From assembly GCA_947589125.1 (NCBI GenBank), contig CANPZZ010000010.1, forward strand, positions 1-33,798: a DNA stretch of 33,798 bases. The letters are read 5' to 3'. Made by a program: the position numbers and the translations under genes. Positions 16,907 to 33,798 of this stretch are shown here, in pieces. The DNA comes from an uncultured Lachnospiraceae bacterium. GTDB taxonomy: Bacteria > Bacillota > Clostridia > Lachnospirales > Lachnospiraceae. The notes below the pieces were generated by a model, which searched no databases, was not told the DNA's origin, and worked only from the letters and a program-made list of their open reading frames with translations. Position 1 is the stretch's first letter. The number at the start of each line of letters is the position of its first letter.

Positions 16907-16922
16907 CGTGGCGCCATTTCGT

Positions 16923-17014
16923 CAGAGAATATACCGCATCGATATGGTGTCAGAATGGGGAGAGGGCAAAGCCACCGGATCGAACCGTGCGCATCCGTCG
17001 GAGGAAGGGTGTCC
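16923..17014 (+). ncRNA. Copy 1 of a structured intergenic repeat element (candidate)
   Basis: cagagaatataccgcatcgatatggtgtc...ccaccggatcgaaccgtgcgcatccgtcggagg...gtgtcc aligns almost end to end with 25117-25207, with a conserved stem and the identical 16-mer cgaaccgtgcgcatcc. Confidence 0.5.
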
Positions 17015-17114
17015 TGCCGCCTGCTGCAGATACGATTACAAAGCCTGTGGAGAGTGGTTCAGCTGATGGTATGGAAGAATGATTATAAAGAACGATATGG
17101 AAGGAATTTCAGGG

Positions 17115-25059: not shown

Positions 25060-25073
25060 CGAACAAATGTTCG
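25060..25073 (+). promoter_or_regulatory. LexA/DinR-like SOS box CGAACAAATGTTCG
   Basis: Matches Gram-positive DinR consensus CGAACRNRYGTTYC except at the last base(s); 9 bp upstream of a predicted -35. Confidence 0.7.
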
Positions 25074-25082
25074 AAAACCGGA

Positions 25083-25111
25083 TTGCTATTTTGGGGGAAA
25101 TATGGTATAAT
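25083..25111 (+). promoter_or_regulatory. Sigma-A-type promoter TTGCTA-17 bp-TATAAT
   Basis: -35 TTGCTA at 25083-25088, -10 TATAAT at 25106-25111, spacer 17 bp. Confidence 0.7.
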
Positions 25112-25116
25112 CTCGA

Positions 25117-25207
25117 CAGAGATTATACCGCGCCGGTTCGGTGTCCGAACGAAGTGAGGACAAAACACCGAAGCGAACCGTGCGCATCCCCCGGAGGGAG
25201 CATGTCC
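25117..25207 (+). ncRNA. Copy 2 of the structured intergenic repeat element (candidate), in the leader of the glycosylase gene
   Basis: cagagattataccgcgccggttcggtgtccgaacgaagtgaggacaaaacaccgaagcgaaccgtgcgcatcccccggagg...atgtcc; stem GGTTCGGTGT/ACACC..GAACC. Confidence 0.5.
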
Positions 25208-25258
25208 GGAGGACATGGTATAATAATAGTATCGAGATTGCGGAAGGAGGCGGCAGTT

Positions 25259-25777
25259 ATGGCGGAGCGCACCCACCAGATACATTTGTATGAACCGGTG
25301 TACGATGAGCGGTCAAGGATCCTGATCCTGGGAACATTCCCGTCGGTAAAGTCCCGGGAGAACGGATTTTTCTACGGCCACCCGCAGAACCGGTTCTGGA
25401 AAGTACTGGCGGCGGTGACCGGAAAGGCGGTTCCTCAGACAATCAGTGAGAAGAAGACGCTTCTTCTGGACAGCCGCATCGCTTTGTGGGATGTGATCGC
25501 TTCCTGCGATATTGCCGGCTCCAGCGACGCCAGCATTACGAATGTGGTGCCTTCAGATATCGGAAGGATCCTGTCCGAAAGCGCTGTTGAGAGGATCTAT
25601 GCGAACGGATCGACGGCAAAGCGGCTTTACGATATGTACCAGAAGAAGCAGTGCGGAAGGGATATCATTCTCCTGCCGTCCACCAGCCCGGCCAACGCGT
25701 CCTGGACCTTTGAGCGGCTTGCCGGCCGGTGGGCACAACTGCTGGATCTCGGCAGTCTGCCCATGGAGGGGGAATGA
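25259..25777 (+). CDS. DNA-deoxyinosine glycosylase / uracil-DNA glycosylase superfamily
   Basis: ILILGTFPSVKSRENGFFYGHPQNRFWKVL, LPSTSPANASWT; SD ggaagga before ATG 25259. Confidence 0.85.
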   Translation: MAERTHQIHLYEPVYDERSRILILGTFPSVKSRENGFFYGHPQNRFWKVLAAVTGKAVPQTISEKKTLLLDSRIALWDVIASCDIAGSSDASITNVVPSDIGRILSESAVERIYANGSTAKRLYDMYQKKQCGRDIILLPSTSPANASWTFERLAGRWAQLLDLGSLPMEGE

Positions 25778-33519: not shown

Positions 33520-33798
33520 CAGATGAGCAAGACAGGTGATCGCTGCCGCGGAACCGAAAGGCCGCGGGGGAGGAAAGTCCGGGCTTCACAGGGCAGGATA
33601 CCAGATAACGTCTGGCGGAGGCGACTCCAGAGACAGTGCAACAGAAATGTACCGCCGGTTTCGGCCGGTAAGGGTGGAAGGGCAGTGTAAGAGACTACCG
33701 CCCGGGTGGTAACATCCGGGGCACATGTAAACCTTATCCGAAGCAAGACCGAACAGAAAGCATAAGGCGGCCCGTCTGCTTTCGGGTAGGTCGCTTGA
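33520..33798 (+). ncRNA. rnpB: RNase P RNA, bacterial type A, 3' end cut by the window
   Basis: gaggaaagtccgggcttcacagggcagg, gacagtgcaacagaaa, taagggtggaagggcagtgtaagag, ccgaacagaaagcataaggcgg..gggtaggtcgcttga are canonical rnpB segments. 5' boundary approximate. Confidence 0.95.

What the first reader, a model, noticed from the sequence alone, without database searches (positions are those of the whole stretch)
16923..17014. Two-copy structured intergenic element with compensatory stem changes (copy 1; partner at 25117-25207)
Seen: two intergenic stretches 8 kb apart, upstream of unrelated genes (GH43 and a DNA glycosylase), align over about 91 nt with one apparent indel. Both start CAGAGAnTATACCGC and share the identical 16-mer CGAACCGTGCGCATCC followed by nnCGGAGG. 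The stem pairs CGAT..GGTG with CACC..ATCG here, and GGTTC.GGTGT with ACACC..GAACC in copy 2: the bases change but pairing is kept. The inner GTC/GGC (here) versus GTCC/GGAC (copy 2) also pairs. Inference: a dispersed structured RNA or palindromic non-autonomous element, same orientation relative to the downstream gene in both cases.
Basis: partly seen in the sequence, partly recalled or inferred. Interest (0 to 1): 0.7.

Follow-up and report, generated by a model that had tools for sequence, protein, structure and literature searches.

The report
Small mobile repeat inside gene promoters
The two similar stretches are copies of an undescribed 113-letter mobile DNA repeat of gut bacteria that inserts at one exact point inside working gene promoters and leaves a promoter signal on both of its sides, so that it can spread and stack up without obviously switching genes off.

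Summary
The repeat is real and larger than reported. It is a ~113-nt, three-hairpin element: the intact copy is window 25105-25217, and the finding's copy (16911-17021) is a decayed fossil that no longer folds. The genome holds about 21 copies, and 19 of 26 genomes of the genus carry it, often in 2-3-fold tandem arrays. It also occurs in a few other Lachnospiraceae, including a complete isolate genome. Rfam has no match. Orthologous promoters in close relatives show filled and empty sites at six loci. Where the sequences resolve it, the insertion lies between the TG and the nTATAAT of a host extended -10 promoter. The element supplies its own TATAAT on the left and a CATG on the right, so host -35/TG + element TATAAT and element TG + host -10 are both intact. 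Host flanks carry a -35 box at a 17-bp spacer (p=1e-19). A second, different unit ("B") uses the same kind of site. Structure is supported by covariation across the family (not by copy 1 versus copy 2). No transposase was found: Y1 and IS110 are missing from most copy-rich genomes. Best reading: a non-autonomous mobile element targeting promoters, mobilizer unknown; a host-serving regulatory RNA is unlikely.

The parts
25105..25217 (+). intact element (unit A), 113 nt, inserted between TG and nTATAAT of the host promoter of the UDG-family gene
   Evidence: CM match 116 bits; empty orthologous sites; fold z -5.67
16911..17021 (+). decayed copy (the finding's copy 1) between two GH43 genes
   Evidence: CM match 25.8 bits with many broken pairs; no fold, z +1.62; relatives keep only its left part
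25105..25128 (+). HP1: GTATAATCTC-GACA-GAGATTATAC; the left arm carries the element's own -10 TATAAT (25106-25111)
   Evidence: covariation in helix 1
25130..25185 (+). HP2: GCGCCGGTTCG ... CGAACCGTGCGC, nearly invariant outer stem
25188..25198 (+). conserved CCCCCGGAGGG, possible mini-hairpin
   Evidence: alignment A2; pairing seen in some single folds only
25201..25217 (+). HP3: terminal hairpin CATGTCC-GGA-GGACATG; its last TG serves the downstream promoter
   Evidence: covariation in helix 3
25060..25073 (+). LexA-box-like palindrome CGAACAAATGTTCG of the host promoter (name from general knowledge, not tested)
   Evidence: conserved upstream of orthologs
25083..25088 (+). host -35 box TTGCTA, 17 bp from the left -10
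   Evidence: genome-wide -35 signal at spacer 17
25103..25104 (+). host TG of the extended -10, directly left of the insertion
   Evidence: junctions at other loci; here
25218..25224 (+). host nTATAAT displaced to the right end of the element
25259..25777 (+). downstream gene, uracil-DNA glycosylase superfamily
   Evidence: Pfam UDG

Best explanation
The element is a short (about 113 nt), non-coding, non-autonomous mobile element that integrates in one orientation between the TG and the nTATAAT of host extended -10 promoters. It starts with its own nTATAAT (left arm of HP1) and ends with CATG (right arm of HP3). After insertion the host -35 and TG are joined to the element's TATAAT, and the element's TG plus the host -10 form a second extended -10 promoter downstream. 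Because the rebuilt right-hand site is again a target, copies stack head to tail and next to another unit (B). Shown: copy number, site, empty sites, duplicated -10, fixed direction, structure kept by covariation, decay of old copies. Inferred: that both promoters are active, that the hairpins and the invariant HP2 stem are substrates for an unidentified mobilizer acting in trans, and that insertion is tolerated because the promoter survives while the mRNA gains a structured leader. How copies move is not known.
For: About 21 copies here and matches in 19 of 26 genomes of the genus; copies in isolate genomes, one complete. Filled and empty orthologous promoters at six loci; at ompR, lytTR and mutS2 the host TATACT stays on the right and the element's TATAAT is on the left. 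A -35-like box at spacer 17 in 28 of 81 non-redundant left flanks against 71 of 2187 at other spacers, p 1e-19. Right-end -10 TATACT 10 of 83, left 0 of 110. Downstream gene codirectional 70 to 20, upstream unbiased. Covariation 45 two-sided cells against 8.9 shuffled. Tandem arrays with a unit-length period. A different unit B at the same kind of site. Copies decay.
Against: No transposase or longer autonomous relative was found. No terminal inverted repeats and no clear target duplication (0 or 2 bp). Movement was inferred from comparison, never observed; at some loci gain and loss cannot be told apart. MAG assemblies often lose multicopy transposases, so absence is weak.
Confidence: 0.85

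Rival explanations
1. A cis-regulatory structured RNA leader (riboswitch- or attenuator-like) kept for the benefit of the host genes.
For: Strong fold, covariation, position in 5' leaders, codirectional with the downstream gene, tandem copies as in some riboswitches.
Against: Downstream genes are unrelated (mutL, mutS2, lepA, rnhB, response regulators by reading, UDG by Pfam). Orthologous promoters in close relatives lack it. Copies decay freely. No Rfam match.
Confidence: 0.07
2. A small element mobilized by a Y1 (IS200/IS605) transposase acting on single-stranded DNA: hairpin ends, one orientation, insertion 3' of a fixed short motif.
For: Hairpins at both ends, no clear target duplication, oriented target; the fold is kept on one strand.
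Against: No Y1 gene found in this genome, in copy-rich G008, G012, G018, or in the 11-copy and the complete C. asparagiforme genomes. Y1 loci that were found do not carry element-like ends.
Confidence: 0.15
3. A site-specific recombinase or RNA-guided (IS110-like) system with TG as the crossover core inserts a circular form whose junction (CATG/GTATAAT) resembles the target.
For: TG present at both junctions, fixed orientation, a circle junction would itself be an extended -10 site, tandem arrays follow naturally.
Against: IS110 transposase found in only 1 of 10 element-bearing genomes. Serine and tyrosine recombinases were not surveyed. No excised circle was seen.
Confidence: 0.25
4. No dedicated mobilizer: copies spread by recombination or template switching at the short homology TGGTATAAT shared by promoters.
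For: The junctions share a short homology, no transposase was found, and copy number varies between species at one locus (lytTR: one copy in G000, two in G011).
Against: About 9 nt is very short for homologous recombination. The crossover lies at the same base at the well-preserved sites. Elements keep covarying structure and defined ends, which slippage would not maintain.
Confidence: 0.1

Closest known systems
Correia elements (Neisseria) and other promoter-bearing prokaryotic MITEs (review PMC10969869)
   Same: Short, non-coding, multicopy, intergenic upstream of genes, carry sigma70-like promoter sequence
   Different: Correia has terminal inverted repeats and TA target duplication (general knowledge); here there are no terminal inverted repeats, and the target is the core of an existing promoter, whose -10 is duplicated
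IS200/IS605-derived small elements and REP/RAYT repeats (general knowledge)
   Same: Hairpins near the ends, fixed orientation relative to a short target, no clear duplication
   Different: No Y1 transposase in most copy-rich genomes; the hairpins lie at the very ends, and the left arm is a -10 box
BOX and RUP repeats of pneumococcus (general knowledge)
   Same: Small structured intergenic repeats, modular or tandem, upstream of genes
   Different: No sequence relation tested; the exact extended -10 target is not a feature known to me for them
Rfam structured RNA families
   Same: Conserved fold with covariation, leader position
   Different: No family matches the element; copies are mobile and decay

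Membership tests
Classical MITE | Short, non-coding, multicopy, dispersed | tested here: met
   about 113 nt, 21 matches in this genome
Classical MITE | Terminal inverted repeats | tested here: not met
   Left GTATAATCTC and right ...GGACATG are not inverted copies; each end is its own hairpin
Classical MITE | Target-site duplication | tested here: inconclusive
   TG occurs at both junctions but belongs to the HP3 stem as well; 0 or 2 bp
Classical MITE | Parent insertion sequence sharing its ends | tested here: inconclusive
   None found in ten genomes, but MAGs are incomplete
IS200/IS605-type derivative | Hairpin ends and insertion 3' of a fixed short motif in one orientation | tested here: met
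IS200/IS605-type derivative | Y1 transposase in the host | tested here: not met
   None detected in G000, G008, G012, G018, G190, G193
IS110-type (bridge RNA) | DEDD/Transposase_20 transposase in the host | tested here: not met
   1 of 10 element-bearing genomes
Riboswitch or other cis-regulatory RNA | Consistent association with functionally related genes and conservation at orthologous genes | tested here: not met
   Unrelated genes, empty orthologous sites
Structured nucleic-acid family | Compensatory base changes beyond shuffled and slid controls | tested here: met
   (HP1 and HP3; the HP2 outer stem is nearly invariant and says nothing)
Known Rfam family | Match to a curated covariance model | tested here: not met

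The most novel reading that the evidence does not exclude
A distinct class of promoter-parasitic mini-elements (at least two different families, A and B) dispersed by an undescribed system that recognises the bacterial extended -10 itself, possibly in the open promoter complex, and that rebuilds a promoter at each end.
Probability: 0.35. Interest if true: 0.85.

Novelty: new variant of a known kind. Interest (0 to 1): 0.66.

Why it matters
Mobile elements usually break or override promoters. This one inserts at a single point inside the core promoter, hands its own -10 to the host gene and hands the host -10 a new TG, so both promoters look intact. That is a simple route by which a parasite can sit in front of housekeeping genes (mutL, lepA, mutS2) and by which tandem promoters and structured leaders arise. 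If the mobilizer reads the extended -10, it would be a natural promoter-targeting integration system and a marker of extended -10 promoters in these Lachnospiraceae.

Tried and rejected
First placed the boundary 3' of TATAAT; rejected once the ompR, lytTR and mutS2 empty sites showed that the host's TATACT lies at the right end and the element's TATAAT at the left. Copy 1 versus copy 2 compensatory pairing: rejected. Y1 and IS110 transposases as obvious mobilizers: not supported. Autonomous long version: none found; left-end-only matches were truncated or partial copies. A conserved small ORF from the GGAGG...CATG of HP3: rejected by reading, because hairpin length variants change the frame. 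Phage and plasmid collections: no match; viral contigs: one contig with a copy at its end. A guide-like reading of HP1 (the internal ATTATACC reads the target): not supported at the ompR site, where the host -10 does not match it. mutL was not counted among the clear empty sites because its upstream region differs or is rearranged in relatives. Literature searches found no description, but the library is open-access only and ISfinder was not available.

Full report
What is there. The two stretches share a 16-mer that occurs 10 times exactly and 19 times within two mismatches in the 2.5-Mb genome, and never with the reversed control pattern. Aligning these copies shows a defined unit with tandem spacing of about 112-114 nt. 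A covariance model built from 31 diverse copies finds the intact copy at window 25105-25217 (116 bits) and the reported copy at 16911-17021 (25.8 bits, many pairs broken). The model finds 21 matches in this genome and matches in 19 of 26 genomes of the genus, up to 29 per genome. A strict pattern hits 111 stretches in one-genome-per-species data, in records titled Lachnospiraceae, Hungatella, [Clostridium] asparagiforme and other gut MAGs. A sample of 148 other genera of the family gave none. Four further genomes reached through named records, one of them a complete chromosome, also hold copies, so this is not an assembly artefact.

Anatomy. The unit is nTATAATNTC-loop-GANATTATAn (HP1), then GCGCCGGTTCG...CGAACCGTGYGC (HP2), a conserved CCCCCGGAGGG, and a terminal hairpin CATG...CATG (HP3). 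HP1 and HP3 covary: 45 cells with two-sided compensatory change against 8.9 in shuffles, 99% of cells paired, and all slid controls fail. The HP2 outer stem is nearly invariant, so it points to sequence recognition and is no evidence for structure. Single-sided changes keep G-U pairs more often than A-C (16 to 2 without the HP2 column; related sequences, so not independent). The sense strand therefore seems to be the one that folds. This does not tell RNA from single-stranded DNA.

Copy 1 is a fossil. It does not fold (z +1.62), and three relatives keep only its left part between the same two GH43 genes.

Where it inserts. The UDG-family gene behind copy 2 has a conserved promoter in congeners: a LexA-box-like palindrome, a -35, and TG nTATAAT. 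It is empty in G008 and G002, filled by element A here, decayed in G014 and G021, and filled by a different unit B in G011. Five further orthologous promoters (STAS-domain, lytTR-type, ompR-type, mutS2, lepA; names by reading) give empty sites. The ompR, lytTR and mutS2 sites show the exact point. The host's own -10 variant (TATACT) stays on the right, while the element's TATAAT is on the left. The crossover is between the TG and the n of the extended -10. Either there is no duplication or the TG is duplicated; the data cannot decide.

Genome-wide support. In 81 non-redundant left flanks, which are host DNA, a TTGACA-like box (at least 4 of 6) lies at a 17-bp spacer in 28, against 71 of 2187 at other spacers (p 1e-19). 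Right-end -10s vary as host promoters do (TATACT in 10 of 83), left ones do not (0 of 110). The downstream gene is codirectional 70 to 20, while the upstream gene is unbiased (crude ORF calls).

A second unit. Unit B (GTATAATAACGAGG...GTCGAGATG, about 83 nt) starts and ends in the same way, sits at the same kind of site, and occurs in both A-B and B-A order. This suggests a shared way of getting in rather than a peculiarity of one sequence (inference).

How it probably works. The insertion leaves two complete extended -10 promoters: host -35 and TG with the element's TATAAT, and the element's TG with the host -10. Neither promoter's activity was measured. Any rebuilt site is a new target, which explains the arrays. 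Old copies lose their 3' part; in the truncated copies read here the element's -10 is mostly kept, as expected if it has become the gene's promoter, but this was not counted formally. The mobilizer is unknown. Y1 transposases were not detected in this genome, several copy-rich congeners, the complete C. asparagiforme genome and an 11-copy genome. IS110 is present in 1 of 10 element-bearing genomes. No longer relative with the same left end was found. Serine and tyrosine recombinases were not surveyed.

Comparison with the known. It works like promoter-bearing MITEs such as Correia (PMC10969869) but fails the terminal-repeat test. It resembles IS200/IS605 derivatives at the ends but fails the transposase test. 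It matches no Rfam family. I found no description in the open-access literature, which does not exclude one elsewhere.

Verdict. A real non-autonomous mobile element, undescribed as far as I could check, with an unusually exact and informative target: the core of extended -10 promoters. New variant of a known kind; the mechanism of movement is the open question.

Noticed in passing
L163:1325-1420 (+); also L043, L086, L143, L005, L026, L029, L030, L084: Unit B, a second structured unit of about 83 nt that starts GTATAATAACGAGG and ends GTCGAGATG, inserted at the same kind of promoter site and found in tandem with unit A in either order.
   Followed up: partly
window 25060-25073: LexA-box-like palindrome CGAACAAATGTTCG upstream of the UDG-family gene, conserved in relatives: the gene may belong to the SOS response.
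   Followed up: partly
window 33524-33798: Bacterial RNase P RNA class A, cut off by the end of the contig.
   Followed up: no
L220:1-100: A copy of the element lies at the end of a contig of the viral collection, just after a small holin-like gene (by reading), so the element may also travel in prophages.
   Followed up: partly
L067:3160-3225: Nearly perfect palindrome of about 60 nt (CATTTCATGTTATAATATTGTTAC...GTAACAATATTATAACATGAAATG) with an extended -10-like motif in both arms.
   Followed up: no
L045:1576-1714 (+): Sub-threshold match to Clostridiales-1 RNA (25.1 bits, gathering 48, E 0.059) directly downstream of an element copy; it did not recur in the larger search.
   Followed up: partly
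L290, L291, L292, L293, L295, L296, L297: Left-end-only copies: HP1 and part of HP2 remain directly upstream of a gene, the 3' part is lost.
   Followed up: partly
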